Below, one piece after another: positions 20,924 to 28,431 of a stretch of DNA of 64,000 nt. Within the stretch, counting starts at the first letter, position 1, and each line of letters opens with the position of its first letter. The notes beneath the pieces were generated by a model, which saw nothing but the letters and a program-made list of their open reading frames with translations, was not told the origin of the DNA and did no database searches. This stretch comes from Propionicicella superfundia DSM 22317. Its GTDB lineage: Bacteria; Actinomycetota; Actinomycetes; Propionibacteriales; Propionibacteriaceae. The DNA lies in assembly GCF_000423465.1 (NCBI RefSeq), contig NZ_KE384022.1:124001-188000 (forward strand), in the 5' to 3' direction. The position numbers were made by a program, and so were the translations under genes.

Positions 20924-21909
20924 TCGACATTCTGATGCTCCCGTTCATGCAGCGCGCCCTGCTGGCGGCGTTCGCGATGGGGCTCATCGCCCCCGCCATC
21001 GGCACCTTCATCGTCCAGCGACGCCTCGCGCTGCTGGGCGACGGCCTCGGCCACGTCGCGATCGCCGGCGTGGGTCTGGCGCTCGCCACCGGCTCGGCAC
21101 CGCTGCCCCTGGCGATCATCGTCAGCGTCGTGGGCGCCGTCGGCGTCGAACTGCTGCGCCAGTACGGCAAGGCGAGCGGAGACGTCGGCCTGGCCATCCT
21201 CTTCTACGGCGGACTCGCCCTCGGCGTCCTCCTGGCCGGGGTTGCCGGGCAGGGCGCCGGCGGACTGTCCCAGTACCTCTTCGGATCCCTCCTGACGGTG
21301 ACCCCGTCCGACCTGTGGATCATCCTCGGCCTCGGCTTCCTCGTCCTCGTGCCCGCGATCGGTCTCGCCCCGCAGATCTTCGCCCTCGCCGCCGACGAGG
21401 ACCACGCCCGCACCCTCGGACTGCCCGTCCGGCTGTACAGCATCCTGCTCGTCGTCCTCGCGGCGATCACCGTGGCCCTGTCCATGCGCACGGTCGGGCT
21501 CCTGCTCGTGTCGGCGCTGATGGTCGTCCCGGTGGCTGCCGCCAACAACATGGCGCGGAGCTACCGCGGGGCGATCGGGATGTCCCTCGTGCTCGGTGTC
21601 CTGGCCTCGGTCGGCGGCGTCCTCGGCTCCTACTGGCTGAACGCGGCCCCCGGGGCGACCATCGTCATCATGGCGATCGCCTTCTTCGCCCTCTCATGGC
21701 CCGTCGGGACGCTGCTGGCCCGCCGCCGCGCCCCGGTGCGGGAGATCGCCGAGCCCGAGGAACTGCCGCACACGACGACACCCGTGCCGCACCCGCACGT
21801 CCATTCCGACACCTGCGGTCACGTCATGGTCCATCACGACGATCATGTCGACTTCATCCACGACGGCCACCGGCACGCCGCGCACCTCGACCACTACGAT
21901 GAGCACTGA
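20920..21909 (+). CDS. znuB: Zinc ABC transporter permease
   Basis: A 329-residue cluster-9 permease with about eight membrane helices between residues 1 and 270. The N-terminal 'GTFIVQRRLALLGDGLGHVA' is the family's ATPase-contact region. After the last helix there is an unusual 45-residue cytoplasmic tail with well over ten histidines ('PVPHPHVHSDTCGHVMVHHD' and beyond), likely to bind zinc. Such tails are not universal in ZnuB. It is translationally coupled to znuC and followed by zur after 5 nt. Confidence 0.94.
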   Translation: MIDILMLPFMQRALLAAFAMGLIAPAIGTFIVQRRLALLGDGLGHVAIAGVGLALATGSAPLPLAIIVSVVGAVGVELLRQYGKASGDVGLAILFYGGLALGVLLAGVAGQGAGGLSQYLFGSLLTVTPSDLWIILGLGFLVLVPAIGLAPQIFALAADEDHARTLGLPVRLYSILLVVLAAITVALSMRTVGLLLVSALMVVPVAAANNMARSYRGAIGMSLVLGVLASVGGVLGSYWLNAAPGATIVIMAIAFFALSWPVGTLLARRRAPVREIAEPEELPHTTTPVPHPHVHSDTCGHVMVHHDDHVDFIHDGHRHAAHLDHYDEH

Positions 21910-21914
21910 TCACC

Positions 21915-22334
21915 ATGACCGAACATCCCACGCTGCCCCAGCCGCTCCGCCGTACCCGCCAACGGGCGGCCCTCGCCACCCTCCTGGCCGGGTCGAGCGA
22001 GTTCAAGACCGCGCAGGATCTGCACGGTGAGCTGATGGCTGCCGGCGAGCAGGTCGGCATCGCAACCGTCTACCGCACTCTGCAGTTGATGGCCGACGCG
22101 GGCGAGCTCGACGCGATCCGCACAGCGGACGGGCATGCGGCCTACCGCAGTTGCTCGACACGGCACCACCACCACCTGATCTGCCGCGACTGCGGCAAGA
22201 CCGTGGAGATCCAGGCACCCGACTTCGAGACGTGGGCCGGCGAGATCGCACGCGCCAACGGCTTCACCGACATCGCCCACGAACTCGAGCTGTTCGGCCG
22301 CTGCGCCGACCACGGAGGATCGGTCAGCGCCTGA
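21915..22334 (+). CDS. zur: Fur-family zinc uptake regulator Zur
   Basis: A 139-residue Fur/Zur-type repressor. The winged helix is in the first 80 residues ('RRTRQRAALATLL', 'GIATVYRTLQLMADAGELD') and the regulatory metal cluster is 'STRHHHHLICRDCGKTVEI'. The first structural-zinc pair is CxxC; the second, normally also CxxC, reads 'CADHGG', so one ligand is His or missing. It belongs to the znu operon, which argues for Zur rather than Fur. Its last 11 nt overlap the 3' end of the convergent asnB-like gene. Confidence 0.93.
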   Translation: MTEHPTLPQPLRRTRQRAALATLLAGSSEFKTAQDLHGELMAAGEQVGIATVYRTLQLMADAGELDAIRTADGHAAYRSCSTRHHHHLICRDCGKTVEIQAPDFETWAGEIARANGFTDIAHELELFGRCADHGGSVSA

Positions 22335-24171
22335 CGAAGTACTCGTCGTACCACAGCAGGAAGCTGTAGACCGACCAGATCTTCTTCATGTTCTGCGCCT
22401 TCCCGGCGACGTGGTCGTCGAGGAGGGTGAGGATCTTGTCCTGCTGGAAGAACATCGCCGCCTCGGGGGACGCGAACGCACCTCGCACCTGCGCCGCGTA
22501 CCGCTCCTGGCGCAGCCAGTCGTTGAGCGGCACGGGGAATCCCAGCTTCGGCTTGTTCGCGGTCCGCTCGGGGATCTCGCGCAACGCGGCCTTGCGCAGC
22601 GCCGCCTTGGTCGAGTCCTTCTGGACGCGGTACTTCGTGGGGATGCGCAGGGCGACCTTGAGCACCTCGCGATCCAGGAAGGGCACACGGAGCTCCAGCG
22701 ACGACGCCATCGACATCTTGTCGGCCTTCAGCAGGATGTCGTGGAGCATCCACGTGTAGAAGTCGACGTACTGCATCTTCGTGACGTCGTCGAAGCCGGC
22801 GACACGGTCGAAATAGGGCTTCGTGTAGTAGGACGGCCTGTGCGCCGGGATGCGCTCGGCGAGGATGTCCTCCCGCTCCGCGACCGTGAAGTTGTACTCG
22901 TGGCGGAAGAACCGCTCCTCGATGGGCTCTGCCGAGCGCATCAGGAACCGCTGCCCGTGGAACGCGGGCAGTTTGGACACGACCCGCGCGATCGCAGCCC
23001 GCACCCGCGCCGGGACGACCTTCTCGTAGGGGGCGTAGTTGAGAGGCTCCGTGTAGCCGTTGTACCCGCCGAAAAGCTCGTCGGCCCCCTCGCCGGAGAG
23101 GACGACCTTGACGTGCCGAGCGGCGTTCTTGGCCAAGAAGTACAGCGGGACGGCCGACGGGTTCGGCAACGGCTCGTCCATGTGGTACTGGATGGTGCCC
23201 GCCGACCCGAAGAAGTCGTCCGCCGAGATCTTGTTGGCGACGTTCTCGACGCCGATGACGTCGCTGAAATCCTGCGCGTACGACAGCTCGGAGTACTTCT
23301 CCTCCTCGTAGCCGACCGAGAACGAGGTCACCGCCTGGATCTTCGCCAGCTCGTTCGTCGCATAGCTGGAGTCGACGCCGCTGGACAGGAAGCACCCCAC
23401 CTCGACGTCGGAGATCTTGTGCGCACGCACCGACTCGGAGAACGTGTCGGCGATGCGATCGACCCAGTCGTCCATGCCCGGCTCGTCGTCGGGCGCGAAC
23501 TCGTAGTCGAAGTAGCGCGTGACCGACAGGACACCGTCGGAGTAGGTGAAGTACTCACCGGCCAGCAGCTTGAACACGTCCACGAACATCGTCTCGCGGT
23601 CGGGGATGTACTCGAAGCTCAGGTACTCGGGCAGCCGACGGGTATTGACCTGCTTCACGAACGCGGGATGCGGCAGGAACGACTTGATCTCCGAGCCGAC
23701 GAGGAACGTGTCGTCGTGGTGGTAGTAGTACACCGGCTTGATGCCGAACACGTCACGCGCCCCGAACAGCTTCTTCTCGGCGGCGTCCCAGATGAGGAAG
23801 GCGAACATGCCCCGCAGCCGGTTGCAGATCTCCGGTCCGTACTCCTCGTAGCCGTGGAGGATGACCTCGGAATCGCTGGCGGTCTTGAACGTGTGCCCCC
23901 GCGCGACGAGGTCGGTGCGCAACTCCTGGAAGTTGTAGATCTCGCCGTTGAACACCAGCACCAACGTGTCGTCCTCGTTGGTCATCGGCTGACGGCCGCC
24001 CGCGAGGTCGATGATCGACAGCCGCCGGAAGCCCAGCGCGACACCCCCGTCGACGTAGTAGCTGTCGTCGTCGGGGCCGCGGTGGGCGATGGTGTCGGCC
24101 ATCGCCTCGATCAGCCCCTGCTGCGCTCCGAGATCCGTCTCATCATGGACGTAACCGACCCAGCCGCACAT
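22324..24171 (-). CDS. asnB: Asparagine synthetase B-type amidotransferase (AsnH-like)
   Basis: A 615-residue glutamine-hydrolysing synthetase. The N-terminal glutaminase domain begins with nucleophile Cys2 ('MCGWVGYVHDE') and contains 'HRGPDDDSYY' and 'NGEIYNFQELR'. The synthetase domain has the PP-loop 'FLSSGVDSSYATNEL'. On sequence alone it could make free asparagine. It follows a racemase by 14 nt and a D-aspartate-ligase-like gene, so it may instead amidate D-aspartate in peptidoglycan precursors, as AsnH does in Lactococcus. That role is inferred from context. Confidence 0.88.
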   Translation of the reverse strand: MCGWVGYVHDETDLGAQQGLIEAMADTIAHRGPDDDSYYVDGGVALGFRRLSIIDLAGGRQPMTNEDDTLVLVFNGEIYNFQELRTDLVARGHTFKTASDSEVILHGYEEYGPEICNRLRGMFAFLIWDAAEKKLFGARDVFGIKPVYYYHHDDTFLVGSEIKSFLPHPAFVKQVNTRRLPEYLSFEYIPDRETMFVDVFKLLAGEYFTYSDGVLSVTRYFDYEFAPDDEPGMDDWVDRIADTFSESVRAHKISDVEVGCFLSSGVDSSYATNELAKIQAVTSFSVGYEEEKYSELSYAQDFSDVIGVENVANKISADDFFGSAGTIQYHMDEPLPNPSAVPLYFLAKNAARHVKVVLSGEGADELFGGYNGYTEPLNYAPYEKVVPARVRAAIARVVSKLPAFHGQRFLMRSAEPIEERFFRHEYNFTVAEREDILAERIPAHRPSYYTKPYFDRVAGFDDVTKMQYVDFYTWMLHDILLKADKMSMASSLELRVPFLDREVLKVALRIPTKYRVQKDSTKAALRKAALREIPERTANKPKLGFPVPLNDWLRQERYAAQVRGAFASPEAAMFFQQDKILTLLDDHVAGKAQNMKKIWSVYSFLLWYDEYFVRR

Positions 24172-24185
24172 GGAACCCTTCCGCG

Positions 24186-24899
24186 TTAGACGTCGTGCTT
24201 GACGGACTTGCCGCTGACCTCGATGGTCCTGAGCGCCAGAGCGTCCAAGGAGTCCACGACGTCAGGCGCGAGGCCGAGATCGTGACCGAGGATCGAAAGC
24301 TCCGTACATCCTAGAACAACGGCCTCGGCTCCCCTGTCGCGCAGGTGACCGGCGAGCGCGTCGAAGCGCTCCCGGTCGACCGGGACGCCCGCCTTGACGC
24401 CGTTGTAGATGACGTCCATGACCTCGGCCTGGGTCTCGGGAGCGGGGACGACGCACTCCAGTCCCGCCGCCTCGCACGCCAGGTGGTACGTCCGGGCGAA
24501 CAGCGTCCCGTCGGTCGCCAGGACGCCGAGCCTGCGCAGGCCCGGGACGCGGCGACGGGCACGCGCGATCGTCTCGTCGATGATGCTCAGGAACGGCACC
24601 CGCACCGACGCGGCGAGCTCGGTGTGGAACCGGTGCGCGGTGTTGCACGGCATCGCGATCGCGATCACGCCGACCGCCTCCAGCGCACGGGCGTCGGCCA
24701 GCATCACCGGCAGCGGATCGGCCTCGCTGCGCCCGACGATGAACGCCGTGCGATCGGGAATCGTGGCGTGCTGCAGGACGACGAGGTTGACGTGCTCCTG
24801 GTCGGTCGCGGCATCGGTCAGCGCGACGATGCGGTCCATGAAGTAGACCGTGGCCAGCGGGCCGACGCCGCCCAGCACGCCGATCGCCTGCTCGATCAC
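24186..24899 (-). CDS. Aspartate/glutamate racemase family protein
   Basis: A 237-residue cofactor-independent racemase. The two catalytic cysteines of the family are visible in 'IAMPCNTAHRFH' and 'VVLGCTELSILGHD'. The N-terminal 'GVLGGVGPLATVYFMDRI' is typical of aspartate rather than hydantoin racemases. The GTG start overlaps the stop of the upstream ATP-grasp gene (GTGA), so the two proteins are probably made together. In this setting it most likely supplies D-aspartate from L-aspartate. Confidence 0.9.
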   Translation of the reverse strand: MIEQAIGVLGGVGPLATVYFMDRIVALTDAATDQEHVNLVVLQHATIPDRTAFIVGRSEADPLPVMLADARALEAVGVIAIAMPCNTAHRFHTELAASVRVPFLSIIDETIARARRRVPGLRRLGVLATDGTLFARTYHLACEAAGLECVVPAPETQAEVMDVIYNGVKAGVPVDRERFDALAGHLRDRGAEAVVLGCTELSILGHDLGLAPDVVDSLDALALRTIEVSGKSVKHDV

Positions 24900-26125
24900 C
24901 GCTGCCGCCCCAGGTACCGGTGGAACTTGCGCACCTGGTTGAGATGGTAGGCGGCGTTGTACGCCCGGCGCTTGAGCGTCAGATCGGGCGCGTAGACCTG
25001 CGGGTCGGACCAGCGTCCTTCACGGAACAGGCCCATCGCCCGCTCACGCATCGCGTCGTCGGCGACATAGCGGGAGATGACGTACTTCGGCACGAAGGTG
25101 AACAGGTGCTCGTTCGTCGCGACCTGCACCCCCTCCATCGGCTCGTTGCGCACGAGATCGCGGACCATCCACTCGGCCACGTTGTACCCGGCCGCCGTGT
25201 TGTAGAAGTTGCTGCGGCCCAGGCGGACGTTGATCTCGAAGAACTTGTAGGAGCCGTCGCGCGGGTCGTACTTCACGTCGAAGTTCGAGAACCCCGTGTA
25301 CCCGATGTGCTCCAGGAACGCCGTGGCGTCGGCGACAATCCGTTCGTTGGGCTCGGAGATGATGGCGCACGGGTTGCCGATGGCCGAGGGGACGTGTTCC
25401 TCCAGCAGCGTGTGGCCCGCACTGGCGAACCGCACGGTGCCGCTCGCGTCGGAATAGCACGTCAGCACCCGCATGCCGGTGTCGGCGCCCGGGATGAACT
25501 CCTGGATCAGGAACTTGTAGTCGTAGGTCGAGCTGCGGACGTTCCGCAGCACCTCCTCCAGTTCGGCCCGCGAATCGAGGATGAAGACCTTCTTCTTCCC
25601 GGGGAACTGCGCATAGTGGTACAGGGCGCTGTCGGCCGGCTTGGCGACCACCGGGAAGGGGAAGTCGAAGTCCAACGGGGTGTCCTCGGCGACGTCGTAG
25701 ACGAACGTCCCCGGATGGGCGATGCCGAGATCGGCGAGGATCTCGTAGAACCCGTCCTTGCGGACGATGCGGTTGAGCAGATCCTCGTCGATGTAGGGGA
25801 TGAGGTAGTAGGGAGAGAGCAGATCCTTGTTCTCGATGAGGATCCGCACGTACCAGTCGCCGCAGCCGATGACCAGCAGCTTGATGCCCGTCGACTCGTA
25901 CTCCCTGCCGATCGACACCAGGGTGTCGAGCAGCACCTGCTCCTGCTCGAGGTTCTCGACGTAGCGGTGCTCGACGAGACGGCTCAGCGCGATCGGCCCC
26001 GACCTGGTCATGTTCACGACGAGAGGCTGCAGTCCGTACGCCTCGTGGAACGTCCGTACCAGGCTGTAGGCGGTGATGTCGCCGCCGAGGATGACCGGCC
26101 GGAAATCGTGGGTCGTGAACTGCAT
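24896..26125 (-). CDS. ATP-grasp ligase, probable D-aspartate ligase for peptidoglycan
   Basis: A 409-residue ATP-grasp enzyme. From memory it closely parallels the Enterococcus faecium D-aspartate ligase (Aslfm) along its length: 'PVILGGDITAYSLVRTFHEA' at the start, 'FPGKKKVFILDSRAELEEVL', 'LIQEFIPGADTGMRVL', and 'YTGFSNFDVKYDPRDGSY' followed by 'FFEINVRLGRSNF', where Glu and Asn would bind Mg-ATP. Aslfm adds D-Asp to the lysine side chain of the peptidoglycan precursor. The start at 26125 has GAGAGGA upstream. It heads the operon with the racemase and AsnB-like genes. The acceptor amino acid is not shown by the sequence. Confidence 0.85.
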   Translation of the reverse strand: MQFTTHDFRPVILGGDITAYSLVRTFHEAYGLQPLVVNMTRSGPIALSRLVEHRYVENLEQEQVLLDTLVSIGREYESTGIKLLVIGCGDWYVRILIENKDLLSPYYLIPYIDEDLLNRIVRKDGFYEILADLGIAHPGTFVYDVAEDTPLDFDFPFPVVAKPADSALYHYAQFPGKKKVFILDSRAELEEVLRNVRSSTYDYKFLIQEFIPGADTGMRVLTCYSDASGTVRFASAGHTLLEEHVPSAIGNPCAIISEPNERIVADATAFLEHIGYTGFSNFDVKYDPRDGSYKFFEINVRLGRSNFYNTAAGYNVAEWMVRDLVRNEPMEGVQVATNEHLFTFVPKYVISRYVADDAMRERAMGLFREGRWSDPQVYAPDLTLKRRAYNAAYHLNQVRKFHRYLGRQR

Positions 26126-26222
26126 CGCGTCCTCTCGTCTGTCGCACATGATAGGCCAGCGTCCACCGCCGCCCCCGGCGCCACGACCTGGCGGGACGTC
26201 CCCGCACGCGGCGGCCGGACGG

Positions 26223-27704
26223 TCAGTCGAACCCGTTCGCCGCCGTCCTCGCCGGAGCGGTCGTCGCGTCGATCCACGCCGCGAAGAACGCGTCCAGATC
26301 CTGCCCCGAACGCTCGGCGGCGAAGGCGCGGAACTGCTCCAGCGAGCGGGGGCCCTCCTGCTGCGCCCAGGCGCGGAACACGGGGAAGAACACCTCGTCG
26401 CCGAGCCGGTTCCGCAGCGCCTGCATGGCCATCGGCCCGCGGACGTACACGACCGTGAAGAGTCGTTCGACGCCCGGATCGGCCAGGCTCACCTGCCACG
26501 CCCCGAAGCGCCGGTAGGTGCGCTCGAAGGTGTCGCCGGCCGAGACGCCGCCGACCCGCTCCGCGTAGACCCACGTCGCGAAGGACGCCATGGCCTCGTT
26601 GTCGAAGATGTCGTCCCACCGTGCCAGCGTCACCGTGTTGCCGACCCACATGTGCGCCATCTCGTGGACGATCGTGTCGGTGTCGACCGAGCGTGCGTTG
26701 TACACCGGGCGCCCGGCCGTCTCCAGCGCCCCGAACCACATCCCGGCCGACGGGACGACGCCGCCGATGTCCGCCAGTGGATACGGGCCCAGGAACTCCT
26801 CCAGGGAGCGCACGATCTCGCCGGTGCCGCGCAGGGTGGCCAGCATCTGCGTGCGTTGCCGCGCGGCGATCTGCGTGCTCACGGCGTACACGTAGGGCCA
26901 GTCGCCGTCGGTGCCGGTGACCATCTCGAAGGACCCCATGGAGAGGAACACCGCATACGTCGGCACGGGTCGGCGCTGCTCGTAACGCCAGGTGTCCCGG
27001 GCAGGGTCGTCGTCGGCCGTCCCGACCAGCCGCCCCACACTGAACGCCTCCATCCCGGCTGGGACGGTGACGGTCACGTCGAACGCCGCAGGGTCGCTCG
27101 GATGGTCGTTCGACGGGAACCAGACGGGGGCCGACGCGGGTTCTCCGGCCGCCGTCCACTCCTCTCCGTTGACCAGCCACACGGTGTCGTCGGCCGCCGC
27201 CGGGTCGCCACCGTAGGTGACGGCCACCGTGAACTCGGCGCCCCCGGCGATGGGCTCGGCGGGAGTGAAGCGGACGTCGCGCTCCCCCGGTTCCTGCGTG
27301 AAGTCCGCGGGCTCGCCGTTGACGAGGACGGCGCTGACGGGAAGCAGCAGGTCGAAGGACAGCGAGGTCCAGGCGCTGCCCGCGGCCGCCCTGGCGGTCA
27401 TGACCGTCGTCCCGCTGAGCCGCTCGGTGCCCGGATCCCAGGCCACGTCGATGTCGTAGGCGAGGGCGTCGTACCCGGTCGCTCCCGCCGCGGGGTCGTA
27501 GTCGTCGCCGACGCCGTCGGCGCCCTTCGCGAGGGGGAGCGGCGTCCTGGTCGGCGTGGTCGTTCGCGGCGCCTCCGGTGAAGCCGGGGATCCGTCGGGC
27601 GGCCGCGACCGCCAGGCGAGGATCCCCGTGCCCGCGATGCACAGCGCGACCAGTCCGATGAGGACGATCCACAGGACGCGGCGCGGCGGATCACCGTTCG
27701 ACAT
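26223..27704 (-). CDS. M1-family metallopeptidase, membrane-anchored
   Basis: A 493-residue protein. An N-terminal hydrophobic segment ('VLWIVLIGLVALCIAGTGIL', about 10-29) acts as a signal anchor, followed by a Pro/Thr-rich linker. The body matches M1 zinc metallopeptidases: an N-terminal beta domain, then 'TIVHEMAHMWVGNTV' (HExxH) with the downstream Glu in 'FDNEAMASFATW'. The GAMEN exopeptidase motif is not clear ('WFGALETAG'), so exopeptidase specificity is uncertain. It overlaps the recO stop by 14 nt. Confidence 0.85.
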   Translation of the reverse strand: MSNGDPPRRVLWIVLIGLVALCIAGTGILAWRSRPPDGSPASPEAPRTTTPTRTPLPLAKGADGVGDDYDPAAGATGYDALAYDIDVAWDPGTERLSGTTVMTARAAAGSAWTSLSFDLLLPVSAVLVNGEPADFTQEPGERDVRFTPAEPIAGGAEFTVAVTYGGDPAAADDTVWLVNGEEWTAAGEPASAPVWFPSNDHPSDPAAFDVTVTVPAGMEAFSVGRLVGTADDDPARDTWRYEQRRPVPTYAVFLSMGSFEMVTGTDGDWPYVYAVSTQIAARQRTQMLATLRGTGEIVRSLEEFLGPYPLADIGGVVPSAGMWFGALETAGRPVYNARSVDTDTIVHEMAHMWVGNTVTLARWDDIFDNEAMASFATWVYAERVGGVSAGDTFERTYRRFGAWQVSLADPGVERLFTVVYVRGPMAMQALRNRLGDEVFFPVFRAWAQQEGPRSLEQFRAFAAERSGQDLDAFFAAWIDATTAPARTAANGFD

Positions 27705-28431
27705 GCACCAAGGATCGCAGGCGGTGGTCCAGTTGCCAGCCCACGAAGGACGCGACGAGGTCGCTGGCCTGCCGCTGCACGATATCGGGGACCGCGCGGG
27801 TCGAGACCCAGTCGCCGTCGCGGAGCGCGAGCAGGTAGGGCATCGTCCGACTGCGCGGGACCGCCGAGCCGGGCGGGCGGCACTGGCGGCAGACCGCGCC
27901 TCCGGCGGTCGCGGAGAACGCCTCGTGGGGGCCTGGCGCACCGCACGCGGCGCAGGTGTCGAGGCTCGCTCCGTAGCCTGCGAGCGCGACGGCGCGCAGC
28001 AGGTACGAGTCCATGATCATGCCGGCCGGCCGGGGACCGTCGGGTGTCCCTGTGGTCAGGGTCCGCAGCGCGCCGACCAGGAGCAGGTGCTGGCGCAACG
28101 CGGGCTGGTGGTCCTCCCCGACGACCCGGTCGGCGGTCTCGGTCATCACCTGGGCGGTGGTGAACAGCCGGTAGTCGGCACGCATCGGCTCGGAGAAGGG
28201 GTGGAGCGTCACGGCCTGCGTGATCGTGTCGAGGGTGCGGCCGGAGGCGATCTCCAGGTCGACGTGGGAGCACGGCTCGAGGCGTCCGCCGAACTTGGAC
28301 GACACCCGGCGTACCCCCCGCGCGACGGCCCGCACCTTGCCGTGCAGCCGCGTCAGGAGCGTGACGATGCGATCGGCCTCGCCCAGCTTGTGGGTACGAA
28401 GGACGATGGCCTCGTCGCGATAGGTCGGCAC
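27691..28431 (-). CDS. recO: DNA repair protein RecO
   Basis: A 246-residue recombination mediator that helps load RecA with RecF/RecR. It has an N-terminal OB fold ('YRDEAIVLRTHKLGEADRIV'), a helical middle, and a four-cysteine zinc site ('CAACGAPG', 'CRQC'). The GTG at 28431 is chosen from family length; GACAAT lies 6 nt upstream, giving the leaderless pattern. It is divergent from uppS, with 174 nt between them. Confidence 0.94.
   Translation of the reverse strand: MPTYRDEAIVLRTHKLGEADRIVTLLTRLHGKVRAVARGVRRVSSKFGGRLEPCSHVDLEIASGRTLDTITQAVTLHPFSEPMRADYRLFTTAQVMTETADRVVGEDHQPALRQHLLLVGALRTLTTGTPDGPRPAGMIMDSYLLRAVALAGYGASLDTCAACGAPGPHEAFSATAGGAVCRQCRPPGSAVPRSRTMPYLLALRDGDWVSTRAVPDIVQRQASDLVASFVGWQLDHRLRSLVHVER

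What the first reader, a model, noticed from the sequence alone, without database searches (positions are those of the whole stretch)
22324..26125. A D-aspartate cross-bridge operon for peptidoglycan: ligase, racemase and amidotransferase
Three tightly coupled genes (GTGA overlap, then 14 nt) encode an ATP-grasp protein closely like the Enterococcus D-Asp ligase, an Asp/Glu racemase with both catalytic cysteines, and an AsnB/AsnH-like amidotransferase. In lactococci and enterococci these three activities make a D-Asp or D-Asn bridge on Lys3 of the peptidoglycan. Finding all three as one operon in an actinobacterium predicts an A4-alpha type wall (Lys-D-Asp or D-Asn) and explains an asnB away from nitrogen genes.
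Basis: partly seen in the sequence, partly recalled or inferred. Interest (0 to 1): 0.8.

Follow-up and report, generated by a model that had tools for sequence, protein, structure and literature searches.

The report
D-aspartate peptidoglycan cross-bridge operon, diaminopimelate host
Three adjacent genes in a propionibacterium very probably make, attach and amidate a D-aspartate bridge in its cell wall, as lactic acid bacteria do, but this host seems to build its wall on diaminopimelate rather than lysine.

Summary
The operon is real. On the minus strand an ATP-grasp ligase (26125-24896), an aspartate-racemase-family protein (24899-24186) and an AsnB/AsnH-like amidotransferase (24171-22324) are tightly coupled. 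The same order recurs in a Clostridiales MAG and in Subdoligranulum variabile, and a divergent version in genome G318 of the host's family. The ligase groups with lactobacillar ligases. The amidotransferase groups with AsnH-like enzymes, not with Listeria AsnB and LtsA-like proteins.

The predicted lysine-type MurE fails: the one MurE found has the diaminopimelate (DAP) motif DNPR and passes a DAP-ligase model (523 bits, cut-off 476) but not the lysine-ligase model (228, cut-off 536). Best reading: a D-Asp/D-Asn bridge on DAP (type A4gamma), not Lys-D-Asp (A4alpha).

The ligase lineage differs from those of two family relatives, which suggests several acquisitions.

Open: four ligase-less, DAP-type relatives also carry an AsnH-like gene, so the amidation target is uncertain. 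No wall chemistry is known for this unnamed host.

The parts
24896..26125 (-). ATP-grasp ligase, proposed D-aspartate ligase (AslA/Aslfm-like), 409 aa; first gene
   Evidence: ATP-grasp by Pfam (PF02786) and by fold. In a 100/99-100/100 clade with lactobacillar carboxylate-amine ligases, apart from other actinobacterial ATP-grasp proteins. Keeps the 40 columns invariant across 10 aligned ligases.
24186..24899 (-). Aspartate-racemase-family protein, 237 aa; GTG start overlaps ligase stop
   Evidence: Best solved relative is an aspartate racemase, 1jfl, E 3.7e-47. Both catalytic cysteines present.
22324..24171 (-). AsnB-family glutamine amidotransferase of the AsnH-like clade, 615 aa
   Evidence: 100/100 clade with lactobacillar, Planococcus, Collinsella and Subdoligranulum enzymes.
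24896..24899 (-). GTGA stop/start overlap between ligase and racemase
   Evidence: Sequence.
26126..26140 (-). Ribosome-binding-site-like GAGAGG upstream of the ligase ATG
   Evidence: Sequence read; inference. The sigma-70-type scan found no promoter and no terminator in 21800-28000.

Best explanation
The three genes build a one-residue D-aspartyl cross-bridge on the peptidoglycan precursor. The racemase turns L-Asp into D-Asp. The ATP-grasp enzyme activates the beta-carboxyl of D-Asp with ATP and joins it to the side-chain amino group of the third stem residue, here diaminopimelate (DAP). The AsnB-like enzyme then amidates the free alpha-carboxyl of the bound D-Asp, giving a D-Asn type bridge, which transpeptidases link to D-Ala4 of a neighbouring stem. 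The predicted wall is A4gamma (DAP-D-Asp/D-Asn), not A4alpha (Lys-D-Asp). Shown here: gene order, families, catalytic residues, phylogenetic placement, DAP-type MurE. Inferred: substrates, the DAP acceptor, the amidation site and the wall type.
For: Gene trio: same order in L052 (identities 60, 54 and 60%) and in Subdoligranulum L100/L109 (38, 44 and 49%), divergent form in G318 (L062). In L. crispatus an asnB lies directly before the ligase. In L. curvatus a racemase lies directly before it. Lactobacilli mostly have D-Asp/D-Asn bridges; in L. lactis aslA and racD share an operon, the ligase uses beta-aspartyl phosphate, and AsnH amidates after addition (PMC4155827, passages). Ligase clade 100/99 and 100/100. 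ATP-grasp fold, with PylC, which works on lysine, among the matches. AsnB-like in a 100/100 clade with the lactobacillar enzymes, separate from the 97/93 clade holding Listeria AsnB and LtsA-like proteins. In the family sample all 4 ligase-bearing genomes also have an AsnB-like gene at 48% or more, against 4 of the other 193. DAP-type MurE; role of DNPR in DAP binding: PMC3829189, passages.
Against: No wall chemistry for this unnamed host. DNPR is not the only determinant of MurE specificity (PMC3829189). AsnH-like genes also occur in four ligase-less, DNPR-type relatives, of 79-95% completeness. NCBIfam names the racemase a cysteate racemase, 225 bits against cut-off 190. Ligases from DNPR and non-DNPR hosts do not form two separate groups. 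5 of 14 ligase loci show neither partner nearby. No experimentally characterised D-Asp ligase sequence (E. faecium, L. lactis) was compared directly.
Confidence: 0.6

Rival explanations
1. Same bridge, but the AsnB-like enzyme amidates the DAP side chain (as AsnB/LtsA do), so the bridge stays D-Asp.
For: The host has a DAP-type MurE and no LtsA-clade gene was found: the other PF00733 matches are a 28% identical AsnB on C9 and a weak match on C14. Four ligase-less DAP-type relatives carry genes of the same AsnH-like clade or identity range. Other family genomes use LtsA-clade genes.
Against: The protein falls in the clade of lactobacillar enzymes, apart from Listeria AsnB, whose DAP amidation is proven (PMC8554201, passages), with strong support. 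It is coupled to the ligase and racemase.
Confidence: 0.22
2. One reading: Lys3-D-Asp/D-Asn, A4alpha.
For: The nearest characterised systems are Lys-type lactic acid bacteria (PMC4155827). G318 of the same family does combine the trio with a non-DNPR MurE (DDPHEEDP).
Against: The host MurE passes DAP-ligase models NF001124 (523.1 over 476) and NF001126 (392.1 over 373) but scores 227.9 against 536 for the lysine ligase; its closest solved relatives are DAP ligases; no second MurE among the six PF08245 matches (the MurD assignment is by position).
Confidence: 0.08
3. Not a wall system: a small D-Asp-containing metabolite, or ordinary asparagine synthesis.
For: ATP-grasp ligases and AsnB-like amidotransferases also serve secondary metabolism. 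The operon lies between a zinc-uptake/Fur cluster and an M1 peptidase, with no mur genes adjacent. AsnB is named asparagine synthase by TIGR01536.
Against: Conserved trio across phyla without other biosynthetic genes conserved beside it in the loci read; close kinship with ligase and AsnH-like genes of bacteria with D-Asp walls.
Confidence: 0.06
4. The racemase acts on cysteate (CuyB), so the ligase adds or the operon handles D-cysteate.
For: NF052483 above cut-off for own, L052, Subdoligranulum and G248 racemases.
Against: The lactobacillar and G318 racemases beside the same ligase score just under that cut-off (185 and 158.8 against 190) and all score well in the aspartate racemase family TIGR00035, so the model does not separate them sharply. 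Nearest solved relative is an aspartate racemase.
Confidence: 0.03

Closest known systems
AslA-RacD-AsnH system of Lactococcus lactis and lactobacilli
   Same: Same three enzyme families; ligase and racemase side by side; amidotransferase of the same clade as the lactobacillar ones.
   Different: Those hosts are Lys-type (PMC4155827, passages). In the text seen, L. lactis has aslA and racD in one operon and asnH is described separately; here all three form one operon in a host with a DAP-type MurE.
Aslfm/Racfm of Enterococcus faecium
   Same: ATP-grasp D-Asp ligase for a D-Asp bridge (PMC4155827, passages).
   Different: Not compared directly; no Enterococcus sequence was obtained.
A4gamma peptidoglycan of Dermabacteraceae (Brachybacterium)
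   Same: DAP with an acidic amino-acid bridge; B. avium peptidoglycan contains aspartic acid (PMC6090031 and PMC3035206, passages).
   Different: No bridge genes are named in the passages seen. Genome G230 (unnamed) has a DNPR MurE and two tandem ligases without a racemase or AsnB within the 19 kb read; that it is a Brachybacterium relative is only a guess.
AsnB/LtsA DAP amidotransferases
   Same: Same superfamily, similar length, 36-42% identity.
   Different: Separate, well supported clade.

Membership tests
D-Asp ligase family (AslA/Aslfm-like) | ATP-grasp fold | tested here: met
   PF02786 over cut-off. Model pLDDT 69.1, pTM 0.71. Foldseek E 7.2e-14 to an L-amino acid ligase, PylC among the top; 997 of 1000 re-aligned chains at Z 2 or more.
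D-Asp ligase family (AslA/Aslfm-like) | Groups with ligases of D-Asp-wall bacteria, apart from other ATP-grasp proteins | tested here: met
   100/99 and 100/100 branches, with lactobacillar ligases as proxies; no characterised enzyme sequence included.
D-Asp ligase family (AslA/Aslfm-like) | D-Asp as donor, stem-peptide amine as acceptor | not testable with these tools
   Needs enzymology.
Aspartate racemase | Asp/Glu racemase fold family with two catalytic cysteines | tested here: met
   PF01177 140.8 bits; TIGR00035 199.2 bits; cysteines in 8 of 8 aligned.
Cysteate racemase CuyB | NCBIfam equivalog NF052483 score | tested here: inconclusive
   225.1 bits over cut-off 190, but 3 of 5 other ligase-associated racemases also pass and the other two fall short by 5 and 31 bits.
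Lactobacillar AsnH (bridge amidation) | Clade membership | tested here: met
   100/100 clade of 13 rows. The lactobacillar rows are plasmid-record genes, not the characterised L. lactis or L. casei AsnH. Three ligase-less relatives lie in the same clade.
AsnB/LtsA DAP amidotransferase | Clade membership with Listeria AsnB and LtsA | tested here: not met
   Outside the 97/93 clade. The LtsA label of the Tsukamurella row is recalled, from its neighbours.
A4alpha (Lys-type) wall | Lysine-adding MurE | tested here: not met
   DNPRTEDP and GKGHE; lysine-ligase model 227.9 against cut-off 536.
A4gamma (DAP-type) wall | DAP-adding MurE | tested here: met
   NF001124 523.1 over 476. Meso- and LL-DAP cannot be told apart.
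A4gamma (DAP-type) wall | Dicarboxylic D-amino acid bridge in muropeptides | not testable with these tools
   Needs muropeptide mass spectrometry.

The most novel reading that the evidence does not exclude
This operon is a genetic basis for an amidated A4gamma bridge: a D-Asp ligase that accepts diaminopimelate, with its own racemase and amidotransferase, spread by horizontal transfer between actinobacteria and Clostridia as a portable wall-type cassette, and taken up at least three separate times within one family, whose described walls (from the one genus seen in a review) are A1gamma/A3gamma LL-DAP.
Probability: 0.5. Interest if true: 0.65.

Novelty: new variant of a known kind. Interest (0 to 1): 0.5.

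Why it matters
Peptidoglycan cross-bridge type is a classical taxonomic character of Gram-positive bacteria. If the operon works as proposed, the DAP-type A4 wall gets candidate genes, wall type becomes readable from a genome by pairing MurE type with bridge ligase, and a horizontally moving cassette explains why bridge type is so scattered among relatives. It also shows that D-Asp ligase alone does not predict a lysine wall: 5 of 9 ligase-bearing genomes whose MurE was read are DNPR-type.

Tried and rejected
Considered and set aside: Lys-type wall (MurE tests). LtsA-type amidotransferase (tree). Direct vertical inheritance from family relatives: the tree holding own and G318 ligases together is rejected at p-AU 6.2e-5, own and G371 at 1.3e-4; the groups were chosen after the first tree was seen. 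Cysteate racemase. A clean split of ligases by acceptor type: not found; DNPR label needs 3 changes on the tree, and 68 of 500 shuffles are as low.

Weak or empty: FemAB PF02388 gave no match in the host, but that family also failed to match most controls (3 of 14 match) and I did not show that it makes the bridges of relatives. Promoter and terminator scan: none found. Literature: searches listed no paper that I recognised as describing a D-Asp ligase in Propionibacteriaceae or genes for A4gamma bridges; most hits were seen only as listings, and subscription papers are not held. The Propionimicrobium Lys-type wall came to mind from memory and could not be confirmed. No named Enterococcus or Lactococcus sequence was reached. 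Naming the host: no call gives it; the family Propionibacteriaceae is deduced from a transcarboxylase 5S gene (76% to that of G331, itself close to the 5S structure 1rqb; that 1rqb is from P. freudenreichii is recalled) and from the make-up of the order. Structure model: 93 of 409 residues below pLDDT 50.
Full report
What is there. Three genes on the minus strand at 26125-22324 encode an ATP-grasp ligase, an aspartate-racemase-family protein and an AsnB-like amidotransferase. The first two overlap by GTGA and the third starts 14 nt after the second. The ligase ATG at 26125 has a GAGAGG upstream. They lie between a ZnuA/Fur zinc-type cluster and an M1-peptidase gene. Operon G+C is 65.4% against 70.5% for the window, and 0.64-0.69 in the 1-kb steps 22000-25999 against 0.67-0.74 around them.

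Which families. Racemase: PF01177, nearest solved relative an aspartate racemase, both cysteines present. AsnB-like: PF00733 and GATase domains, Cys2 kept. Ligase: weak in sequence libraries (PF02786; four weak PDB sequence matches led by VanA), but an ATP-grasp fold by model.

Where else. The ligase is rare: in a class sample 52 of 296 genomes match at E 1e-3, but only 4 of 296, own included, below 1e-50. In a family sample 4 of 197 match at 1e-15: own, G318, G371, G393. One genome-contig scan confirmed 5 relatives. Plasmid records gave lactobacillar and Subdoligranulum relatives. Of 14 ligase loci (own, L048, L049, L050, L052, L053, L054, L058, L062, L063, L097, L098, L099, L100), 4 hold all three genes (own, L052, L062, L100), 3 a racemase only (L048, L058, L097), 2 an AsnB only (L054, L099) and 5 neither; several are short. 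L048 and L049 carry two tandem ligases. In genus g122 ligase and racemase are adjacent in G371, and racemase and AsnB share a contig in G393, so the full set is present but full linkage is not shown.

Phylogeny. Ligase trees of 20 and 19 rows put own with the Clostridiales MAG (99/98; 97/98), lactobacillar ligases with G318 (100/99), and G371 with Enorma (99/99; 98/99). Trees joining own with G318 or with G371 are rejected. With 193 of 197 family genomes lacking the gene, several acquisitions are the simplest account; ancient duplication and loss is not excluded. The amidotransferase tree of 28 rows has a 100/100 clade of 13 rows (own, L052, G371, three g134 genomes, Subdoligranulum, Collinsella, Planococcus, Sporosarcina, G318, two lactobacilli), apart from a 97/93 clade of 9 rows with Listeria AsnB. 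Listeria AsnB (strain ScottA) is a proven DAP amidase (PMC8554201, passages); the tree row is another strain's annotated asnB. Note that B. subtilis AsnH is a different protein from the lactococcal AsnH meant here (PMC8554201). L. casei AsnH and L. lactis AsnH act on the D-Asp bridge (PMC3885529, passages; PMC4155827, passages).

The wall type. Six Mur-ligase-domain proteins were found in the host: MurE, MurF, MurC, MurT and FolC by profile, MurD by position. MurE carries DNPRTEDP and GKGHE, is closest to M. tuberculosis-type DAP ligases in the PDB (2wtz; organism recalled), passes two DAP-ligase equivalogs and fails the lysine one. DNPR binds the DAP carboxyl in known structures, though it is not the only determinant (PMC3829189, passages). 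Among nine ligase-bearing genomes whose MurE I read, five are DNPR (own, G490, G371, G393, G230) and four are not (G318 and G248 DDPH, G128 DDTY, Enorma EDPA). Dermabacteraceae show that A4gamma walls on meso-DAP exist (PMC6090031, PMC3035206, passages). A review table lists Cutibacterium of the Propionibacteriaceae as A1gamma (LL-DAP) and A3gamma (PMC11382707, passages).

Results against. Four g134 genomes (79-95% complete) carry an AsnB-like gene at 50-53% identity, a DNPR MurE and no ligase even by profile (three of them are in the tree), so the AsnH-like clade may include DAP amidases. The racemase passes the cysteate-racemase model. In the sister amidotransferases of L052 and G371 the glutaminase Cys2 is Ser, so those may use ammonia; own keeps Cys.

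Verdict. D-Asp cross-bridge operon: likely. DAP as acceptor: likely from MurE, unproven. Amidation of the bridge: more likely than of DAP, unproven.

Noticed in passing
L052:10072-11910; L142:4917-6776; L102:4001-5821: The AsnB-like proteins of the Clostridiales MAG and of G371 begin MSGF, and that of Sporosarcina MGGF, so the glutaminase nucleophile Cys2 is missing; they may use free ammonia.
   Followed up: partly
L048:8259-10783 and L049:8270-10753: Two tandem ligase copies in genomes G248 and G230, which could build a two-residue D-amino-acid bridge.
   Followed up: partly
L139, L140, L141 (genus g134): AsnH-like genes in DAP-type relatives without any D-Asp ligase; their substrate is unclear.
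   Followed up: partly
L062:6526-10626 and L069: G318, of the same family, has a non-DNPR MurE on a different contig from its other mur genes, together with the ligase-racemase-AsnB set: a candidate true Lys-D-Asp wall.
   Followed up: partly
L046:4280-6190: Second AsnB-family protein in the host (28% identical), beside a gene that looks like a polysaccharide chain-length protein (not scanned).
   Followed up: no
window 24186-24899: NCBIfam would name this racemase cysteate racemase (CuyB); the model also passes in 3 of 5 other ligase-associated racemases tested, so the name is doubtful.
   Followed up: yes
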